From Actinomycetes bacterium (GTDB lineage Bacteria; Actinomycetota; Acidimicrobiia; Acidimicrobiales; RAAP-2): a stretch of 7,778 bases of DNA. The notes beneath the pieces were generated by a model. That model saw only the letters and a program-made list of their open reading frames with translations, ran no database searches and was not told the DNA's origin. Within the stretch, counting starts at the first letter, position 1; every line of letters starts with the position of its first letter. Positions 1-7,778 of the stretch are shown piece after piece. The stretch lies in the NCBI GenBank assembly GCA_021787255.1, contig JAJYMD010000326.1, positions 1 through 7,778 of the forward strand, given 5' to 3'. A program made the translations under genes and the position numbers.

Positions 1-563
1 CCGACGCCCTGCTTGTCGAGGGTCTCAGCCACGAGGACCTTGGCGAGCGTGGCGTTCTCCGCACGAGCGAGCATCCAGCCGGGCACGTAGCGGCTGAAGA
101 TGTCGATCACCACGTAGAGGTAGTAGTAGCTCCACTTCTCGGGGCCGAGGAGCTTGGAGATGTCCCAGCTCCAGACCTCGTTCGGCTGGGTGGCCACGAG
201 CTCGGGCTTCTTCTTCGCTGGATGCGTCGCCTGCCGGCGGCGTTCGCCCACCTCTGTGTGCTCGCGAAGCACCCGGTACATGGTGGAGACCGATCCCAAG
301 TAGCGGCCCTCGTCGAGCAGCTTCGCGTACACGGTGGCTGGCGCCTCGTCGACGTGCCCGTCGCTGTTCAAGACCGCTCGGAGCTCTTTGCGCTCGACCT
401 CGGAGAGGGCCCGGGGCTGGGGCGCGGGCACGCGCTCGGGCCTGGGCGGTGCGGGCGACTTGCGGTGCCGGCGGTAGTGACGGGCCCGAGGCTCACCCAG
501 CGCCGCGCACGCCGCCTTCACGCCGACGACCGGTGCCAGTTCTGCGATCGCCTCGTCGATCAC
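1..563 (-). CDS. IS3-family transposase OrfB, integrase core (3' part beyond window)
   Basis: This is the catalytic subunit of an IS3-type transposase; it cuts and joins the element ends. 187 residues are visible from a GTG start at 563, and the rest lies beyond base 1. An HTH_21-type region with [15 protein letters not shown] covers residues 88-102. The rve integrase core follows, with [12 protein letters not shown] at 129-140 and [15 protein letters not shown] at 150-164. D134 in SWDIS matches the first residue of the family DDE triad; the second Asp and the Glu should lie past the window edge. The start is chosen because GTG (563-561) overlaps the orfA stop as GTGA and has a purine-rich GAGAGGGG 9 bases upstream. 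OrfB is in the -1 frame relative to orfA, as usual in IS3, but I see no A-rich slippery heptamer at the junction, so coupled reinitiation seems likelier than frameshifting. The family call is firm; whether the gene is intact cannot be judged. Confidence 0.93.
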
Positions 564-1009
564 CTGGTCTCGCCCCTCTCGTCCAGCGCGCTGTCGGTGG
601 CGAGCTGCTCCAACAGCGCTGAGAGTTTTCCCTGGACCTCGATCACCTTGCGGGCCTTGTCGAGGTCGGAGACGAGCTTCTCGTTCTTCTTCTTCAGCGT
701 CGCGATCTCCCGGTCCCGGGGATCGGCGGGCTGGCGACCCGAAGACCGGCCGAGCGCCTCGTGGGCGCCCTGGCCCGCCTGGCGGCGCCACTCGGTGACG
801 AGCGAGCTGTAGAGGCCTTCTCTTCGCAGCAGGGCACCCTTCTCCGTCTTGGACAGGTGCTCGTACTCAGCGAGGATCCTCGCCTTGTAGTTGGCCGAGA
901 AACGCCGGGGCGGCCTCGCGCGTTCGGGGACTTCGGGGTCCGGGTCGGTGTGGTTCGTCACGGCGCCATCGTGGCGCGCGTCAACGGCGTGGTTGGTCGT
1001 GGTGGTCAT
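560..1009 (-). CDS. IS3-family transposase OrfA (HTH DNA-binding subunit)
   Basis: OrfA of an IS3-type element, 149 residues; it binds the terminal inverted repeats and works with OrfB. A helix-turn-helix region covers about residues 36-76, with [16 protein letters not shown] followed by [20 protein letters not shown], typical of the IS3 transposase_8 fold. Residues 97-135 ([20 protein letters not shown] and on) look like the leucine-zipper coiled coil that mediates multimerisation in this family. The first 30 residues are low-complexity, so translation could begin later. ATG 1009 has a GGGGAAGG purine tract 11 bases upstream. The TGA stop overlaps the orfB GTG, so the two are probably translationally coupled. 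Confidence 0.92.
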
Positions 1010-1061: not shown

Positions 1062-1112
1062 TGTCACTTGCCAGTCCCAAGGGACCACCCCGTTGCCAGC
1101 AACATGGGACCA
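1062..1112 (-). repeat. IS21 terminal repeats, istB end (two copies)
   Basis: The two copies are at 1068-1087 and 1093-1112, 25 bases apart start to start. On the minus strand they read TGGTCCCTTGGGACTGGCAA and TGGTCCCATGTTGCTGGCAA. They are inverted relative to the three copies at the other end. These are the expected IstA binding sites. The outer copy is the more diverged in its centre. Confidence 0.88.
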
Positions 1113-1166
1113 CCTCGCGCCCACCGCAGCCGGCGATCGTGATGATCGTGGCGGCCGGTCGGAGTG

Positions 1167-1973
1167 TCAAGCGCGTCGGCTGCGGCCGGACCGCGCTGCG
1201 TCGCTCTGTGGCCGTGGTTCGAGGGTCGGCTTCTCGTTCGGTCGATAGGACTCGCCTTCGATGACGAGCTCCCACGCCGCGCTCTTCAGGCGGTCGACGG
1301 CCGACTGGGCGAGCATGGGATCGGCCATCATCGCCAGCCACTCGCTCGGGTCCCTATTCGAGGTCAAGACCGTCGCCGCACGGCGGTGGCGCTCGACGCA
1401 GAGCTCGTAGACATCCGCGGTCTCGAGGGCATCGAGTGCCGCCAGCGCGAAGTCATCGAGGATGAGCAGATCGATGCCGATGAGCTTGCGCATCTCAGCG
1501 TCATAACTCGCGTCGAGACGTGCGGCCTTCAATCGTTTGAGCAGTTTGTCTGCACGTTCGAAGTGCACACCGATGCGCCGTCGACACGCGATGTGACCGA
1601 GCGCGGTCGCCAGGAAGGTCTTGCCGACACCGACCGGTCCCAAGATCAACGCGTTCTGTGCGGCATCGACGAAGCGCATCGAGCAGAGCTCGGACCACAC
1701 GGCCTTGTCGAAGGTGACCTTCGCGTCGGCGTCCCATGCGTCGAGGTGCATCGTCGCATCGAGCTTGGCATTTCGCGCCCGCCTCCCCGCAGACGAGGCG
1801 TCGCGCCGCTGGACCTCGTCTGAGAACAGCTGCTCCAAGAACTCGGCGTGGGAGAGGTCGTGGGTCCGGGCCAGGGCCAGCCGCTCCGGCATGGTGTCGA
1901 GGAGCTGTCCGAGCTTCAAGGATCGCATGAGGGAGCGCAGTTCGGCAGAGACGCCCGGAGCCGGCGCGCTCAT
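1167..1973 (-). CDS. istB: IS21 helper protein IstB, AAA+ ATPase
   Basis: IstB is the AAA+ ATPase that helps IstA choose target DNA and stimulates strand transfer. From ATG 1973 it is 268 residues, close to the usual 250-270. The N-terminal helical region has LKLGQLLDTMPERLALARTH at about 19-38, typical of IstB. Walker A is GPVGVGKT at 112-119, Walker B LLILDD at 169-174, and a sensor-like TSNR sits at 204-207 before DPSEW. The frame is open upstream to 2054, but ATG 1973 is preferred: it overlaps the istA TGA as ATGA, has AGAAGG 7 bases upstream, and yields the family N-terminus. The Arg/Ser-rich tail (residues 256-268) is non-specific. The family identification is secure and the protein appears intact. 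Confidence 0.95.
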   Translation of the reverse strand: MSAPAPGVSAELRSLMRSLKLGQLLDTMPERLALARTHDLSHAEFLEQLFSDEVQRRDASSAGRRARNAKLDATMHLDAWDADAKVTFDKAVWSELCSMRFVDAAQNALILGPVGVGKTFLATALGHIACRRRIGVHFERADKLLKRLKAARLDASYDAEMRKLIGIDLLILDDFALAALDALETADVYELCVERHRRAATVLTSNRDPSEWLAMMADPMLAQSAVDRLKSAAWELVIEGESYRPNEKPTLEPRPQSDAARSGRSRRA

Positions 1974-3526
1974 TGTCCGACCTTCTTGGACGAAAAGGCC
2001 GATGCGTCGCGTGCGAAGCGTCCCTGGACGATGACACCATTGGCGCGGCGCCACTCCTCGGGTGCATCCTCACGTGCCCGCTCCAACATGCGGCTGACGA
2101 GGTTCACGTCGATCGCTTCGGCATCGAGCGCGCGCCGGCACGCCGCGTCGAGTCGGGCGTCGCCCCACTTCTTGGCCAGTCCCAAGAGCCGGTAGACCTG
2201 CCGCATCTTGGTCCAGGGCAGAGGTGAGTCGAGGAGGGCCGCGGCGTAGGTGCCGACGGCCGGACCGATCTCGGCGGCCCGGCGAGTGAGCGACTCGATG
2301 TCGCGCATCGCGTAGGCCTCGGTGCCCGGCGGGTAGTCCGCAGGATCGCTGGAACGCCGGCCAGGAGCCATCTTTGGGTGCAGTTTTACGAGCTCGCCGT
2401 GCAAGTAGAACTTCACCGTGGTCGAGTCCCGACGCACGCGAAGGGTCTTGCCACGCAGCGTGTAGTTGACGCTGTAGAGGGCCTTGCCCGTCTCGCAGTG
2501 GAAGTCGCGGTGGACCTTGGCTGTCGACCACACTGGCGTGTCGAACGGCGTGGCCGGACGCGCCAAGAGCAGTGCGAGCTCTTCTGCCCTGAAGTGCTCC
2601 ACCGGACGCAGCTGAGTCGTGCCGTGGATGCGCATGCCCGCGGTCGTCATGCACCAGGTCTCTGCACGGCAACGGACGTCGGTGAGGTCCATGAACTCTT
2701 CGCCCTTGAAGAAGTTTGTGCGCACATAGGGCACGACCCGTTCCACGCGTGGTTTGTCCGTCGGAGTTCGCACACGGGCTGCATCGATGACGAAGCCCCG
2801 GGACTGCGCGTACTCGATGAAGACGTCGTTGAACCGGGGCGCGGTGTTCTCCGCCTCGATGATGATCGAGGACATGTTGTCGGGAATTGCGACCGGGAAG
2901 ACGCCACCGAAGAACCCCCACGCCGCTTCGAAGCCACGGATCACCTCTTCGGTCGTCTGGAGGAACGTCGGCCAGACGAACATGTGCCGGGAATAGCACG
3001 CGGTGAAGATGAGCCCATAGCACACGCGACGCCGCTCGCCGTCGGGGACGAGACCGAGCCTTCCGAAGTCGACTTGCAGCTCGCGACCGGGCGGTGGATC
3101 GTCGACGCGCACCGTCGGCTTCCTGCGTCCCGTCCCGCAGCGCTCGACGCAGTAGCGCGCGAGCGTGCGATGCGGGACCTCCACGCCGCGCCGGGCGAGG
3201 AGGATCCCGATCTTCACCACGGTGAGGTCGGCCTCCACCCACTTCTTGATCTGGTCGTGCTCTGAGACGAGCGTGCGCCACGCCTCGCCGTGGCCGTCCG
3301 TTCGATGAGGGCGCACTGCTTCGACGACCTGACCGATCAGCTCGTCGGTGAGCTGTGCCTCGCTGCTCGAGCGATCCAGCCCGGCTACGGCGCCAGCTGC
3401 GATGTAGCGCCTCGCCGTCTTGCGATCGACCCCGACGGCACGGGCGATCGTCCGCTCGCCCTCACCTCTCAACCACCGGCGGAGTGCCTCTTTCACCTGC
3501 ATCACCGTGACCTCCCTGAACGCCAT
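1970..3526 (-). CDS. istA: IS21 transposase IstA (DDE family)
   Basis: IstA binds the terminal repeats and catalyses transposition. It has 518 residues, normal for IS21. An N-terminal HTH is at about 22-42 (EGERTIARAVGVDRKTARRY), followed by a second DNA-binding region to about 130. The rve catalytic core runs from about 145 to 270. Probable DDE residues are D153 in LQVDFG, D216 in AIPDN and E262 in RVERVV, so the triad looks intact. A C-terminal Mu-type beta-barrel-like region includes YSVNYTLRGKTLRVRRD at about 351-367. ATG 3526 has GGAGGAGG 4-5 bases upstream. An internal ATG at 3502, with GGGAGG upstream, would give the shorter MQVKEALRRW start that resembles other IstA proteins, so the exact start is uncertain. 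It overlaps istB by four bases, indicating coupled translation. Confidence 0.96.
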   Translation of the reverse strand: MAFREVTVMQVKEALRRWLRGEGERTIARAVGVDRKTARRYIAAGAVAGLDRSSSEAQLTDELIGQVVEAVRPHRTDGHGEAWRTLVSEHDQIKKWVEADLTVVKIGILLARRGVEVPHRTLARYCVERCGTGRRKPTVRVDDPPPGRELQVDFGRLGLVPDGERRRVCYGLIFTACYSRHMFVWPTFLQTTEEVIRGFEAAWGFFGGVFPVAIPDNMSSIIIEAENTAPRFNDVFIEYAQSRGFVIDAARVRTPTDKPRVERVVPYVRTNFFKGEEFMDLTDVRCRAETWCMTTAGMRIHGTTQLRPVEHFRAEELALLLARPATPFDTPVWSTAKVHRDFHCETGKALYSVNYTLRGKTLRVRRDSTTVKFYLHGELVKLHPKMAPGRRSSDPADYPPGTEAYAMRDIESLTRRAAEIGPAVGTYAAALLDSPLPWTKMRQVYRLLGLAKKWGDARLDAACRRALDAEAIDVNLVSRMLERAREDAPEEWRRANGVIVQGRFARDASAFSSKKVGQ

Positions 3527-3530
3527 GGGG

Positions 3531-3538
3531 CCTCCTCC
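3531..3538 (-). promoter_or_regulatory. Ribosome binding site of istA
   Basis: On the minus strand the sequence reads GGAGGAGG shortly before ATG 3526. It is the best Shine-Dalgarno match near this gene and favours 3526 over the internal ATG at 3502. Confidence 0.65.
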
Positions 3539-3558
3539 GCGTCGGCTTCGGAGGCCCA

Positions 3559-3576
3559 GCCGAGTGATTCCTCGGC
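3559..3576 (-). other. Stem-loop in the istA leader
   Basis: GCCGAG at 3559-3564 and CTCGGC at 3571-3576 form a perfect 6-base stem with a 6-base loop. It lies between the innermost terminal repeat and the istA start, so it would be in the istA mRNA leader if transcription begins in the repeat array. A role in limiting transposase expression or read-through from outside is possible but not shown. Confidence 0.35.
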
Positions 3577-3598
3577 CGGCGTTGGTGGATGGTCAGGG

Positions 3599-3682
3599 TG
3601 GTCCCATAACTGGCAACGAAAGTGGTCCCATGCCGCTGGCAAAACTGCCCGTCAGCTGGTCCCATGTGGCTGGCAAACGACA
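3599..3682 (+). repeat. IS21 terminal repeats, istA end (three copies)
   Basis: Three copies in direct orientation lie at 3599-3616 (TGGTCCCATAACTGGCAA, two bases shorter), 3623-3642 (TGGTCCCATGCCGCTGGCAA) and 3657-3676 (TGGTCCCATGTGGCTGGCAA). The outermost is followed by ACGACA, whose complement TGTCGT is the element tip. Start-to-start spacings are 24 and 34 bases. These are the likely IstA binding sites, and the promoter of istA may overlap them. Confidence 0.88.
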
Positions 3683-3718
3683 GCAGCAGAACACTCGTCA
3701 GGACCCCGCCTCACTCGT

Positions 3719-3734
3719 CGCCGTCTGGACGGCG
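3719..3734. promoter_or_regulatory. Inverted repeat upstream of the sigma factor gene
   Basis: CGCCGTC at 3719-3725 and GACGGCG at 3728-3734 are perfect 7-base arms separated by TG. It lies 58 bases before the sigma gene, in the 110-base interval between the IS21 end (3682) and ATG 3793. It could be an operator for the sigma operon or the terminator hairpin of a gene displaced by the insertion. There is no T-run after it. I see nothing else definite in 3683-3780. Confidence 0.35.
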
Positions 3735-3781
3735 CCATCCGCAGGTTCACACGGGTGGTAACTCGGAGCAGAATCCGGACT

Positions 3782-3787
3782 TATACA
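3782..3787 (+). promoter_or_regulatory. Possible -10 element for a leaderless sigma operon transcript
   Basis: TATACA is an AT-rich hexamer in GC-rich surroundings and ends 5 bases before ATG 3793. If it is a -10 box, transcription would begin at or next to the A of ATG, giving a leaderless mRNA, which is common in actinobacteria. This fits the absence of a convincing Shine-Dalgarno there. No good TTGACA-like -35 is present at the normal distance. GGTAAC at 3757-3762 resembles an ECF-type -35 element, but its spacing to TATACA is 19 bases. Confidence 0.35.
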
Positions 3788-3792
3788 GAGTG

Positions 3793-4413
3793 ATGGCGAG
3801 GGATCAGCTGCGTGTGGATCGGGAGGCAGCGTTCGTCGCGCTGTTCGACGCCCACTACGGCAAGATCCTGGCCTTCGCGACGAGGCGCATCGGGCCCGAC
3901 ATCGCCAAGGATGTCGTGGCGGACACGTTCGTCACCGCATGGTTGAGGCTCGAGGACCTGCGGGGCGACCCCCTGGTGTGGCTGTACGGACTCGCGAGGG
4001 GGGCGCTGGCCAATCACCGCCGTAGGCTCCTTCGCGCCCAGCACCTCTCCGACCGGGCCGAACGGCTTTCGGCGCCCCGTGAAGGAGGCGACCCGGCGGA
4101 CGACGTCGCGTGGCGGGACTCGTTCGCCTCTGCCTTCGGCCAACTCGCCGAAACCGACCGTGAGGTGCTGCGCCTCGTCGCCTGGGAAGGCCTCGACACT
4201 GACGCGGCGGCAGCGGTCCTCGGATGCTCGGCTGGCGCCTTCAAGGTGCGGCTCTACCGCGCTCGTCGACGCCTGCGTCGCTATCTCCGGCTCGATAGCG
4301 GTGTCACCCGCGCCATGAGGACCACAGATCCTGCCGGCGCCGTTACGCCCAAGGTCAACCCGCCGCAAGGATTCTTGGCGCCTGCTGTCTCCAAGGAGCT
4401 CCCATGCCCATGA
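3793..4413 (+). CDS. ECF-type RNA polymerase sigma factor (sigma-70 family)
   Basis: This alternative sigma factor directs RNA polymerase to a small regulon, probably including its own operon. It has 206 residues from ATG 3793. Sigma region 2 is at about 14-80 (FVALFDAHYGKILAFATRRI, then DVVADTFVTAWLRLEDL and WLYGLARGALANHRRR). A linker follows, then sigma region 4 at about 114-166 with LAETDREVLRLVAWEGL and the HTH DAAAAVLGCSAGAFKVRLYRARRRLRRYL. There is no region 3, which is the ECF layout. A tail of about 40 residues follows region 4 (167-206). GTG 3790 is an alternative start. The frame is open back into the IS21 end, but that extension has no sigma-like content. It overlaps the next gene by 10 bases, the classical arrangement of a sigma factor with its membrane regulator. 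The ECF subgroup cannot be assigned by eye. Confidence 0.93.
   Translation: MARDQLRVDREAAFVALFDAHYGKILAFATRRIGPDIAKDVVADTFVTAWLRLEDLRGDPLVWLYGLARGALANHRRRLLRAQHLSDRAERLSAPREGGDPADDVAWRDSFASAFGQLAETDREVLRLVAWEGLDTDAAAAVLGCSAGAFKVRLYRARRRLRRYLRLDSGVTRAMRTTDPAGAVTPKVNPPQGFLAPAVSKELPCP
4393..4398 (+). promoter_or_regulatory. Ribosome binding site of the propeller gene
   Basis: AAGGAG lies inside the 3' end of the sigma gene, 5 bases before ATG 4404 and 11 bases before the in-frame ATG 4410. It favours 4404, although starting at 4410 would give a classical ATGA overlap with the sigma stop at 4411-4413. The two starts differ by two residues. Confidence 0.7.
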
Positions 4414-6107
4414 CCTGGCCAGCCGAAATGGTCGACGCCGAGGTTGCCCGTCACAATCCGGTCCATAGCGACCTCACGCACGCCGTGCGCAGCGCGGAGG
4501 CAATCGAGCTCCTCTCTCATATCCTCGACCTCGACTACCAAGGCGCCGTCGACGCCGAGCCCGGAGCTGCCCCGGCCCGTCCGACCCCTCAGGTGGAAGA
4601 CCAGCCGGGCGTCTGGACCAGAGGGGCGTACCGGCGCTGGATCGCACCTCGACCGAAGCTCGTGCTCGCCGCCGCGACCCTGCTCGTCGTCGGCGCCGTG
4701 GCCGGGACGCTCGCATCGCTGGGAGGCGGCGGGCTCAGCCGGCCCTTCAAGACGTCCTGGCGGCCCGCACACCCGCTTGCGGCGCCGGAGAAGGCGGTAG
4801 AACGCTCCGGCACTTGGCGGCTCGTCGATGCCCTGCTCACCGGCACCTGGCAACAGAACGTCTACGGCCCGCCTCCCGGGTGGTTCTCGTGCTCGCCGGG
4901 TGGTTCCTGCTTCGTGCTCGCCGGCAAGTATCCGTCGGTCAGAGCCGGCGCCCCACTCCTTTCGGAGTCCTTGTACGTCAGTGGTGACCAGGGGGCAACT
5001 TGGGCGGCGTTCCCGTTGCCCGCCGGACTCGTGCCCACGACGCCGCTCGAGTGCAGCGGTCCGCAGTGGTGTGCCGCCGGTGCGACGTTCAACGGCCAGC
5101 CGGCACTCGCGATCACCCGCAATGGGGGCCACTCGTTCACGGTCGACCCATTGCCCACAGGGGTGGGAACCCTGTTCGGCCTCGCTTGCCCGGCGACAGC
5201 CGTGTGTGAAGGGCTCACCGCGGCATCGACTTCGGGGACAACACCGGTCGACGCCACCTTCCTCGTGATCAACAACGGCGGATCGACCTTCCACGACGAA
5301 GCCATCGTCGCCGGTGAGTCGATGACCCACCTTGCATGCATCTCGGCCACAGACTGCACGGTCGTCGGACAGACGGATGCAGCACCGTCAGCAGTCTCGG
5401 CCGTCACGACCGACCAGGGCCGCACGTGGAAGGCGGGATCCCTTCCGGCCGGCTTCGGGATCGACAGGTGGAACTCGCTGGCGTGCCCTGACGAACGCCA
5501 CTGCTTTGTGACCGGACAGGTCCCGATGCGAGTCAAGAACCCGCCGATCTGCTCGACACTGAACTCCCAGAGCCCGACGCAGGCGACGACACAGACTCTT
5601 CCGAACATGAGCTCGCAGGTAGCGGCGATCTCGAAGAAGGAGACCGAGATTCTGTTTGCCGAGGTTGCGAAGCAGACCACAGTCAACTTGGCCACATGCC
5701 GCAACGGGATCTCGAGCTTCGGTGACGTCGCCTCGAGCAAGGACGGTGGGCTGACCTGGACGCCCGAGATGCTGCCGAGCGATGTGCCAGGGCCTTCTCT
5801 CACAGGGCTGTCGTGCCCGACGGCGACAGAGTGCTGGACCGGGGGGCAAGAGGCGGTTCCCGTGACGCTCAAAGGCGGCGGGATCGACATGGGATCTCCG
5901 GTCCTCATCGGTACGACGGACGGCGGGGCGACGTGGTCCAAGGTCGTCTTCACCGTCCCCTCGACAGCTCCAAACCTGACAAGCCAGACCTACCTTTCGA
6001 TGGGCTCGGTCACATGCCCTACAGCGAATGTGTGCCTGGCGAGAGGAATGGCTGCGCAGAGCGCTCGTTACGCACCGGTCTACAGCCTCATCAAACCGCG
6101 CAACTGA
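4404..6107 (+). CDS. Single-pass membrane protein with extracytoplasmic Asp-box beta-propeller; candidate anti-sigma/sensor
   Basis: This is a 567-residue protein I cannot name. Residues 1-80 are hydrophilic and contain no cysteine. RRWIAPRPK then precedes one membrane segment at about 85-106 (LVLAAATLLVVGAVAGTLAS); positive charges before it predict N-terminus inside and C-terminus outside. The exterior part has six Asp-box (BNR) motifs: SGDQGATW 193-200, TRNGGHSF 238-245, INNGGSTF 289-296, TTDQGRTW 335-342, SKDGGLTW 445-452 and TTDGGATW 504-511. Seven C-x5-C pairs alternate with these (163/169, 217/223, 262/268, 312/318, 361/367, 471/477, 538/544), usually followed by a Gly, suggesting a seven-bladed propeller with one short disulfide loop per blade. 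C383 and C432 lie in a long insert before pair six. All 16 cysteines are extracytoplasmic. Overlap with the sigma gene suggests the cytoplasmic part binds the sigma factor. It lacks the HxxxCxxC zinc motif of ZAS anti-sigma proteins, so that role is inferred. Confidence 0.85.
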   Translation: MPMTWPAEMVDAEVARHNPVHSDLTHAVRSAEAIELLSHILDLDYQGAVDAEPGAAPARPTPQVEDQPGVWTRGAYRRWIAPRPKLVLAAATLLVVGAVAGTLASLGGGGLSRPFKTSWRPAHPLAAPEKAVERSGTWRLVDALLTGTWQQNVYGPPPGWFSCSPGGSCFVLAGKYPSVRAGAPLLSESLYVSGDQGATWAAFPLPAGLVPTTPLECSGPQWCAAGATFNGQPALAITRNGGHSFTVDPLPTGVGTLFGLACPATAVCEGLTAASTSGTTPVDATFLVINNGGSTFHDEAIVAGESMTHLACISATDCTVVGQTDAAPSAVSAVTTDQGRTWKAGSLPAGFGIDRWNSLACPDERHCFVTGQVPMRVKNPPICSTLNSQSPTQATTQTLPNMSSQVAAISKKETEILFAEVAKQTTVNLATCRNGISSFGDVASSKDGGLTWTPEMLPSDVPGPSLTGLSCPTATECWTGGQEAVPVTLKGGGIDMGSPVLIGTTDGGATWSKVVFTVPSTAPNLTSQTYLSMGSVTCPTANVCLARGMAAQSARYAPVYSLIKPRN

Positions 6108-6120
6108 GTGAGCCCGCACG

Positions 6121-7059
6121 GTGCCTAACCAATCTCGGAGGCGCGGACAGCGCGCGCCGCAGAGATCCGCACGCCATGGTGCCCGACGCTCCCGGAGCCT
6201 GGTGTTCACTTGGGGTGCGGTCGGCCTTGTCGTGGTAGTAGTGCTCGTGGTGGTCGTCGTGAGTCAGACGAGTCGCAATGCACCGATCAGTGGGCTCCAC
6301 TTCACGCCGAAGCCGGTCCCCGCGACGATCGCCGGGGAGATCACCCACGTCCCTGTCTCGTCCTTCAACGCAGCCGGGCCTGGACTTGCAGAGATCACGC
6401 ACCCCGTGGTCCTCAGCGAACAACCGGCACTCACGTTCACAGGCAAGCCTGGGATCTTCGGTCTCTTCGGGGAGTTCTGCCCCTTCTGTGCAGCGGAGCG
6501 CTGGGCGGTCATCACGTCCCTTTCTCGGTTCGGGACGTTCAGGGGCCTGAAAACGATGCAGTCCTCTCCGAAGGACACGGCGCCGAGGACCCAGACCTTC
6601 GAGTTCGCGACAGCCACTTACTCGAGTCCCTATGTGTCGGCAAAGCTCCTGGAGATGTTCGGCCAGGACAAGGCGACAGGCAGACATCCCATCATCAAGA
6701 GGCCGACCAAAGTCGAAGAGAAGCTGATCGAGAAGTACGATCCGACAGGCACGATCCCGCTCTTCGACATCGGCAACAAGCTCTTCGTCACGGGCGCCAC
6801 GTACTCGCCGACAGTCCTGAAGGGCCTGTCGAGGGCAACAATCGCGGCCGGCCTGTCGCACCCGTCCGACCTGGTGGCGCGGCTGATCTTGGCAGCCTCA
6901 AACTGTCTTTCAGCGGGCATCTGCGCGATCGACGGCGGGTCGCCTCATCCCGTGTGCGCGAGCGTCGGGGTGAGGGACGCTGCGATGGCACTCGGGCTCC
7001 GGATCCAACGGGCGCCGGCGACAGACGCCGGCCCCGGTACGAGCATCGAGAAGACTTGA
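6121..7059 (+). CDS. DUF929-type membrane-anchored thioredoxin-like protein with CPFC motif
   Basis: A 312-residue protein resembling the DUF929 family of archaea and acidophilic actinobacteria. The N-terminus is very basic (residues 1-26), followed by one membrane segment at about 28-48 rich in valine, so the rest should be extracytoplasmic. The thioredoxin-like signature is GEFCPFCAAERWAV at 117-130 (C120, C123), and a cis-Pro-like TIPLFDIGNK is at 211-220. Three further cysteines lie near the end (C262, C268, C279). Known behaviour of CxxC thioredoxin folds suggests a disulfide oxidase, isomerase or reductase, but activity is unproven for DUF929. GTG 6121 is 13 bases after the propeller stop; no in-frame ATG lies before the membrane segment, and the ribosome binding site is weak, suggesting translation coupled to the gene before. 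The context implies that the cysteine-rich propeller is its substrate or partner. Confidence 0.85.
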   Translation: MPNQSRRRGQRAPQRSARHGARRSRSLVFTWGAVGLVVVVVLVVVVVSQTSRNAPISGLHFTPKPVPATIAGEITHVPVSSFNAAGPGLAEITHPVVLSEQPALTFTGKPGIFGLFGEFCPFCAAERWAVITSLSRFGTFRGLKTMQSSPKDTAPRTQTFEFATATYSSPYVSAKLLEMFGQDKATGRHPIIKRPTKVEEKLIEKYDPTGTIPLFDIGNKLFVTGATYSPTVLKGLSRATIAAGLSHPSDLVARLILAASNCLSAGICAIDGGSPHPVCASVGVRDAAMALGLRIQRAPATDAGPGTSIEKT

Positions 7060-7339: not shown

Positions 7340-7778
7340 TCAGGAGCCCGCGAGCACCCGGCGCTGGGCCGCCGTGAGGTCGACCGGTCGACGTGTCTTG
7401 TGGCGGTAGACCGCCTGCAGCATCCTCGTGTTCTTGTGGCCCAGGAAGTCGGCAACCTCCTGCAACGACGCGCCCGCGGAGACGAGAAGGGTAGCCGCGG
7501 AGTGGCGCAGCTCATTCGGGCTGATCGGCTCCATCCCAGCCCCGCGGCAGAGTCGCATCACCTCGCGGCGGAGGTTGTTCTTATCGATGTAACGCCCGAT
7601 CCCGTTGGGAAAGACGAGGCCGAGGTCATCCCAGGCCTGCGCGTCCAGTCGCTCCCGCTCTTGCTGGTGTTCATGCGCCTTCAGTGCGTCGTAGATGGCG
7701 TCGGGGAGCCGTTGCACGCGGTCAGACTCGGCCTTCGTGGCACCGATGACCATGGAGCCATCGGGCAACATCTTGCGG
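7340..7778 (-). CDS. Tyrosine recombinase / phage-type integrase, C-terminal part (5' end beyond window)
   Basis: The catalytic half of a tyrosine recombinase; its N-terminal DNA-binding region and first catalytic arginine lie beyond base 7778. The frame is open to the window edge, so the ATG at 7771 is not taken as the start. Numbering from that Met: the beta-hairpin lysine is K13 in GATKAESDRVQRLP; box II is SPNELRHSAATLL with R89; LGHKNTRML gives H112; the nucleophile is probably Y122 in QAVYRH. The His usually found three residues before the box II Arg is Asn here (N86). A 21-residue tail follows Y122. Such enzymes integrate and excise prophages or integrative elements, so it marks mobile DNA continuing to the right. 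It points towards the sigma operon and is convergent with it. Confidence 0.92.
   Translation of the reverse strand, partial: RKMLPDGSMVIGATKAESDRVQRLPDAIYDALKAHEHQQERERLDAQAWDDLGLVFPNGIGRYIDKNNLRREVMRLCRGAGMEPISPNELRHSAATLLVSAGASLQEVADFLGHKNTRMLQAVYRHKTRRPVDLTAAQRRVLAGS

What the first reader, a model, noticed from the sequence alone, without database searches (positions are those of the whole stretch)
3793..7059. Three-gene module: ECF sigma, membrane disulfide-propeller, DUF929 CPFC protein
Seen: the sigma gene overlaps the propeller gene by 10 bases, and 13 bases separate the propeller from the CPFC gene, all on one strand. Known: ECF sigma genes are often followed by a membrane regulator, and CxxC thioredoxin folds act on disulfides. 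Inferred: an extracytoplasmic signal is read by a propeller stabilised by disulfides, passed through one membrane helix to a cytoplasmic sigma-binding segment, with a dedicated oxidoreductase keeping the propeller cysteines in order. I know of no described system with this composition.
Basis: partly seen in the sequence, partly recalled or inferred. Interest (0 to 1): 0.78.

Follow-up and report, generated by a model that had tools for sequence, protein, structure and literature searches.

The report
Sigma factor with disulfide-propeller anti-sigma partner
In some uncultured actinobacteria, a gene switch (sigma factor) is paired with a membrane protein whose outer part is a cysteine-rich propeller and whose inner tail most likely holds the switch off; the pair recurs in related genomes, while the third gene, a probable thiol-disulfide protein, looks like an occasional extra.

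Summary
The three genes are real and at the stated places. The sigma-propeller pair is a true module: 15 of 15 relatives with cytoplasmic tail, membrane helix and upstream sequence have an ECF sigma gene directly upstream (13 found by propeller search, 2 through promoter-like sites); 3 of 3 secreted look-alikes do not. DUF929 is not core: it follows the propeller in 3 of 13 testable places, window included; 11 of 12 genomes hold DUF929 elsewhere, and relatives without it beside the propeller keep the cysteines. The propeller protein is most likely a membrane anti-sigma factor. Tail type tracks sigma type independently of the ectodomain (15 pairs: r 0.855, partial 0.795); for one group sigma and ectodomain trees conflict (p-AU 0.0004). 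A two-box site (TGWAAC-N15/16-KACAT) precedes sigma at 1 mismatch or fewer in 12 of 16 loci (window: 2) and the propeller gene, inside the sigma gene, in 6 of 16. In 7 genomes all 7 exact sites precede this sigma. An experimentally shown parallel exists: Tt-RpoE1/Tt-TolB (PMC3397946).

The parts
3757..3782 (+). candidate autogenous ECF promoter, GGTAAC-N15-GACTT, 36 nt before the sigma ATG
   Evidence: 2 mismatches to TGWAAC-N15-GACAT; a best site with 2 mismatches occurs in 25 of 3735 random 110-nt windows, a better one in none; the distant pair L092 has its site at the same -36 place. With L001 it is the weakest of the 14 sites counted before sigma
3793..4413 (+). ECF sigma factor, 206 aa, sigma2 and sigma4 only
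   Evidence: Pfam Sigma70_r2 residues 17-79, Sigma70_r4_2 residues 111-161; nearest distinct homologue listed is 84% identical
4404..6107 (+). membrane propeller protein, 567 aa, putative anti-sigma factor (start 4404 or 4410)
   Evidence: 76 proteins at E <= 0.001, the query's own entry included; AF2 mean pLDDT 75; propeller folds in PDB
4404..4658 (+). cytoplasmic N-terminal tail, residues 1-85, putative sigma-binding part
   Evidence: no Cys; net positive before the TM helix; tail type follows sigma type; AF2 shows short helices 7-17, 21-28, 31-41 at low confidence
4659..4715 (+). single transmembrane helix, residues 86-104
   Evidence: mean hydropathy 2.34 over 19 residues; AF2 helix 86-104
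4842..6104 (+). extracytoplasmic beta-propeller with seven C-x5-C pairs (C163/169, 217/223, 262/268, 312/318, 361/367, 471/477, 538/544) plus C383 and C432
   Evidence: 15 of 16 Cys invariant in 31 of 31 rows, C432 in 22 of 31; fold; seven blades and one pair per blade are inferred from the seven pairs; that the pairs are disulfides is inferred
6121..7059 (+). DUF929 membrane-anchored, probably thioredoxin-like protein, 312 aa; accessory, not core
   Evidence: Pfam DUF929 E 6.8e-17; C120 and C123 invariant in 33 rows; AF2 mean pLDDT 86.7, helix 27-53
6478..6489 (+). CPFC motif of the DUF929 protein

Best explanation
A two-gene signalling unit. The ECF sigma is held at the membrane by the roughly 80-residue cytoplasmic tail of the propeller protein. 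The propeller, probably stapled by one C-x5-C disulfide per blade, sits outside and senses an envelope or extracellular cue (a ligand, protein or cell-wall fragment). Signal binding or damage releases the tail, by conformational change or regulated proteolysis; freed sigma transcribes its own operon from a TGWAAC-N15-KACAT-type promoter and, in some relatives, transcribes the anti-sigma gene again from an internal promoter inside the sigma gene, which resets the switch. Shown here: gene order, topology features, cysteine pattern, predicted propeller fold, tail-sigma co-variation, placement of promoter-like sites. Inferred: sigma binding, inhibition, promoter activity, signal, release step. In the window the pair is followed by a DUF929 protein that may help oxidise envelope proteins, the propeller among them, but is not needed for the system elsewhere.
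For: Adjacency 15 of 15. Tail-sigma Mantel r 0.855, p 0.0001; partial given ectodomain 0.795, p 0.0001; sigma-ectodomain given tail 0.16, p 0.12. Ectodomain data reject the DPV-tail rows as one clade (p-AU 1.45e-8); sigma data reject the L007/L045/L008/L010 grouping of the ectodomain tree (p-AU 0.0004; that grouping has 93/94 support, not starred). Tails are net positive before the TM helix in 14 of 15 (0 in L009), without Cys in 15 of 15. Secreted look-alikes L094, L095, L098 have no sigma neighbour. Autogenous sites. Precedent with direct binding by a 39-residue tail: PMC3397946.
Against: No binding or transcription data. The tail fold is low confidence (block pLDDT 32-56) and lacks the zinc-type HxxxCxxC signature. 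For the window's sigma and for L001/L011 the sigma tree does not significantly contradict the ectodomain tree (p 0.081; 0.249 and 0.291), so exchange of the sigma is shown only for L008/L010. The window site has 2 mismatches and the window has no internal site; L008 and L010 have neither site. Mantel tests and shuffles do not remove shared ancestry.
Confidence: 0.8

Rival explanations
1. The propeller protein is a target or co-factor of the sigma (an envelope protein made on demand), and a separate unlinked anti-sigma controls the sigma.
For: Seven of seven exact sites in 7 genomes lie before this sigma operon, so the propeller is a main predicted product.
Against: The tail tracks sigma type independently of the ectodomain; a single TM with a positive tail directly after sigma is an anti-sigma layout, and Tt-TolB works that way (PMC3397946).
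Confidence: 0.12
2. True three-gene redox circuit as first proposed: DUF929 is a dedicated partner that sets the propeller disulfides and thus the signal.
For: Gaps of 13 (window), 18 (L001) and 20 nt (L011; start taken from the 328-aa length of P0080, matched to L011 by its contig length); the three propellers group together (support 90/89, not starred).
Against: 10 other testable loci lack it there and keep the same seven C-x5-C pairs; DUF929 occurs elsewhere in 11 of 12 genomes.
Confidence: 0.08
3. The internal sites before the propeller gene are by-products of sigma protein conservation, not promoters.
For: The two boxes fall in one reading frame on K-(R/H) or Q-H and G/R/E-H codons in several loci; L003 and L004 lack the site at 2 mismatches or fewer.
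Against: The residues between differ; codons AAA and CAT are used at the sites of L002, L006 and L009, where AAG and CAC prevail in the two genes; the distant pair L092 has the site at a like distance; 0 of 3735 random windows have 1 mismatch or fewer.
Confidence: 0.3

Closest known systems
Tt-RpoE1 / Tt-TolB of Thermoanaerobacter tengcongensis (PMC3397946)
   Same: ECF sigma directly followed by a protein with a short N-terminal tail (1-39), one TM (39-61) and a large C-terminal part (62-645); tail binds sigma in yeast two-hybrid; sigma transcribes its own gene (tGTTACN16CGTC)
   Different: TolB-type ectodomain, different -10 element; no cysteine staples mentioned in the parts read; sequence relation not tested here; that TolB carries a propeller is recalled, the word does not occur in the paper
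ECF sigma factors with class I-III anti-sigma factors (passages of PMC7406223, PMC8103513)
   Same: sigma2-sigma4 only, co-encoded single-pass regulator, AAC in the -35 box, autoregulation
   Different: tail lacks the HxxxCxxC signature and comes in several unlike types; ectodomain is a BNR propeller
Ycf48 / sortilin-type Asp-box propellers
   Same: BNR and PSII_BNR Pfam models match 24 and 12 of 31 members at E <= 0.01; Ycf48 and sortilin among the top Foldseek rows
   Different: membrane-anchored with cytoplasmic tail, seven C-x5-C pairs, beside a sigma gene
DUF929 (PF06053) thioredoxin-like family (passages of PMC3091736)
   Same: over the Pfam cut-off, CxxC kept
   Different: in the 12 genomes searched most copies are not beside a sigma-propeller pair

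Membership tests
ECF sigma factor | sigma2 and sigma4 domains only | tested here: met
ECF sigma factor | promoters with AAC in the -35 box (PMC8103513) | tested here: inconclusive
   site placement in 12 of 16 loci at 1 mismatch or fewer, window at 2; no transcription data
ECF sigma factor | co-encoded regulator | tested here: met
   single-pass propeller protein directly downstream in 15 of 15 comparable relatives; its regulatory role is inferred
class I anti-sigma (ASDI), zinc type | HxxxCxxC signature in the tail | tested here: not met
   no Cys in any of 15 tails
class I anti-sigma (ASDI) | four-helix sigma-binding fold | tested here: inconclusive
   short helices at low pLDDT
anti-sigma factor, any class | binds and inhibits its sigma | not testable with these tools
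   needs bench work
Tt-TolB type | sequence homology to Tt-TolB | not tested
   architecture compared only
BNR/Ycf48-like propeller | Asp-box repeats and propeller fold | tested here: met
   (window at the BNR cut-off exactly)
DUF929 | Pfam PF06053 over cut-off with CxxC | tested here: met
thioredoxin fold (DUF929 protein) | structural match to thioredoxins | tested here: inconclusive
   best Foldseek E 0.22, none at 0.001, thioredoxin-like rows on top; fold assignment taken from PMC3091736

The most novel reading that the evidence does not exclude
The propeller is a plug-in sensor that has been handed between unrelated ECF sigma factors by exchanging sigma gene and tail as one cassette, and the sigma's only strong sites in its genome are its own two promoters: a self-contained switch whose main product is the propeller itself rather than a distant regulon.
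Probability: 0.25. Interest if true: 0.72.

Novelty: new variant of a known kind. Interest (0 to 1): 0.5.

Why it matters
It gives an uncultured actinobacterial lineage a clearly bounded signalling unit with a testable binding tail and promoter. It also offers a natural experiment on how anti-sigma tails and sigma factors stay matched while a sensor domain is re-used, and a possible case of a sigma factor that controls little beyond its own sensor.

Tried and rejected
Three-gene module: rejected as the conserved unit (see above). Plasmid home: no tblastn match for the propeller in 72,556 plasmid records. Viral home: 20 pattern matches, none confirmed. RNA genes in the window: none found. Wider regulon: a pattern with one mismatch allowed gave 16 sites in 5 genomes, 10 before this sigma or a propeller gene of such a pair, 6 elsewhere without an evident common theme; the reversed-pattern control gave 7. 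Sigma tree against the ectodomain grouping: not significant for window and L001/L011, so an exchange there is not claimed. Class II or III anti-sigma fold for the tail: could not be decided. NCBIfam CU044_5270 and anti-sigma models touch some relatives' tail regions only weakly (E 0.001 to 0.04). Literature: searches listed no title or abstract start on this pair; only listings were seen for most of them, and searches list only part of their hits (15 of 27, 15 of 419, 10 of 32, 12 of 19). The large ECF re-classification paper is not held, so no ECF group number is given.

Rows set apart: L012 (propeller piece at contig start, no upstream), L013/L098 (one place, secreted type), L093 (upstream off the contig), L096 (broken third copy in G003, frames read apart only), L097 (923-aa open frame, short match). 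Other loci are shorter copies of places already counted or lone pattern sites. L047 was left out of the 15-pair statistics because its propeller is cut by the contig end. In the DUF929 count L005, L046 and L047 were not testable. L047 and L092 were found through promoter-like sites, the other 13 relatives by propeller search. L047 resembles L005 closely. The pattern was derived from loci in those genomes; only the G058 site and the second G002 operon were unseen, so its news is the lack of other sites; G006 has none. The 5-of-9 dyad control used first-order Markov samples of each upstream region. The homologue searches scored a capped set of candidates and listed 120.
Full report
What is there. 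The window holds, on the + strand, an ECF sigma gene (3793-4413), a membrane propeller gene (4404-6107) and a DUF929 gene (6121-7059), as reported. Upstream on the - strand lies an IS21-type element (istA/istB-like genes between 1167 and 3526, end repeats about 1068-1117 and 3622-3677), then transposase-like frames (3-1009); downstream lies the C-terminal part of a tyrosine recombinase (7340-7777). No own genome is held.

The pair. Searches gave 76 propeller, 731 DUF929 and 816 sigma proteins at E 0.001 or better, from capped candidate sets for the first two. One scan of genome contigs with the 31-row alignment A1 gave 13 loci, titled as Acidimicrobiales, Acidimicrobiaceae, Ilumatobacteraceae or Actinomycetes MAGs. 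An ECF sigma gene lies directly before the propeller gene on the same strand in L001-L011, in L045, L046 and L047 and in L092: 15 of 15 places where the protein has tail plus TM and upstream sequence exists. L047 and L092 were found through promoter-like sites. The genes overlap by 4 bases in 12 of the 15 and lie 1 (L008, L010) or 11 bases (L011, by the start I chose) apart in three. The window shows 10, or 4 if the second ATG (4410) is the start. C-x5-C propellers with signal-peptide-like starts (L094, L095, L098) have no sigma neighbour. Carriage is patchy: 6 of 61 genomes sampled in one family, its centre included, and 1 of 118 in one order, the centre itself, at E 1e-60.

The propeller. 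AF2 gives a propeller after one TM helix (residues 86-104; mean pLDDT 75); PDB matches are Ycf48, sortilin and many other propellers. Seven C-x5-C pairs occur in 15 of 15 pair members compared (window included, L047 left out), with 16 Cys each (14 in L092) and none in the tail; 57 of 59 listed homologues of at least 520 aa have seven. One pair per blade is inferred.

The tail. Homologues differ most in the tail: NPV, DPV, LGAVEPP, HPDADRV, LRSFRSD and other types (my labels) precede one conserved ectodomain. Over 15 sigma-propeller pairs, sigma and tail distances correlate (r 0.855, p 0.0001), also with ectodomain distance removed (0.795, p 0.0001), while sigma and ectodomain do not with the tail removed (0.16, p 0.12). 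Window and L001 ectodomains are 70% identical but their sigmas 35% and tails 24%. The ectodomain tree rejects the DPV-tail rows as one clade (p-AU 1.45e-8); the sigma tree holds them together weakly (72/60) and does not reject the ectodomain grouping of six rows (p 0.081). With long rows left out the sigma data again do not reject it (0.291, 0.249). Sigma data do reject grouping L008/L010 with L007/L045 (p-AU 0.0004), where their ectodomains fall (93/94). So exchange of sigma plus tail is shown for one group and only suggested for the window's.

Promoter-like sites. Upstream of sigma lies TGWAAC-N15-KACAT (N16 in L001 and L011) at 1 mismatch or fewer in 12 of 16 loci, at 2 in L001 and the window (GGTAAC-N15-GACTT, 3757-3782), and not in L008 and L010, whose sigma is the most divergent. 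A dyad shared by 5 of 9 upstream regions was not reached in 300 Markov-shuffled sets. In 147,888 bases (L001-L013 and window) 13 sites had 1 mismatch or fewer: 8 before this sigma, 4 before the propeller gene within the sigma gene, 1 before another sigma. With later loci the internal site is present in 6 of 16 (L002, L005, L006, L009, L047, L092), 70-79 nt before the propeller start, and at 2 mismatches in L007 and L046; the window has none. None of 3735 random windows had 1 mismatch or fewer. Its boxes share one reading frame, so protein conservation is a rival; codon choice speaks against it. In 7 genomes (25.5 Mb) the exact pattern TGWAACN15KACATR occurs 7 times, in 6 of them, each time before this sigma, once in a second operon of G002; the reversed control gave 3. 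A looser pattern in 5 genomes gave 7 exact sites, all in this operon, and 9 with one mismatch, 3 of them before a propeller gene of such a pair; its control gave 7. So beyond the operon there is no excess over the control.

DUF929. It follows the propeller in the window, L001 and L011 and in none of 10 other testable loci. The three propellers group together (90/89), which suggests one gain. DUF929 matches are in 11 of 12 of these genomes, 1-4 each. The CPFC cysteines are invariant in 33 rows. The fold comparison was weak, so thioredoxin membership rests on PMC3091736 (passages).

Known relatives. The Tt-RpoE1/Tt-TolB pair works as proposed here: a 39-residue tail before one TM binds the sigma, and the protein inhibits transcription (PMC3397946, abstract, sections 5 and 8). 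ECF hallmarks (AAC at -35, autoregulation, co-encoded anti-sigma) are from passages of PMC8103513, class I features from passages of PMC7406223. Verdict: a new variant of a known kind, two genes rather than three.

Noticed in passing
window 1068-3677: IS21-type element (istA/istB-like) whose right end repeat lies about 80 bases before the candidate sigma promoter.
   Followed up: partly
window 3-1009 and 7340-7777: Transposase-like frames (rve and HTH_Tnp_1 matches) and the C-terminal part of a tyrosine recombinase frame the module: a mobile-element-rich setting.
   Followed up: no
L096 (G003:C132) 3516-4099: A broken copy of the propeller, spread over three frames at a contig end, in a genome that also has an intact one.
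   Followed up: no
G001:C163, G002:C201, G003:C201, G004:C81, G005:C100, G058:C34, G065:C80: DUF929 matches lie in tandem pairs about 1.0-1.8 kb apart in 7 of 12 genomes; reason unknown.
   Followed up: no
L010 7143 (- strand): The two-box promoter-like site, with one mismatch, precedes another ECF sigma gene close to the sigma-propeller pair.
   Followed up: no
L092 1130-3054: A distant sigma-propeller pair (ectodomain about 30% identical) with promoter-like sites before both genes, in a genome that also has the common type.
   Followed up: partly
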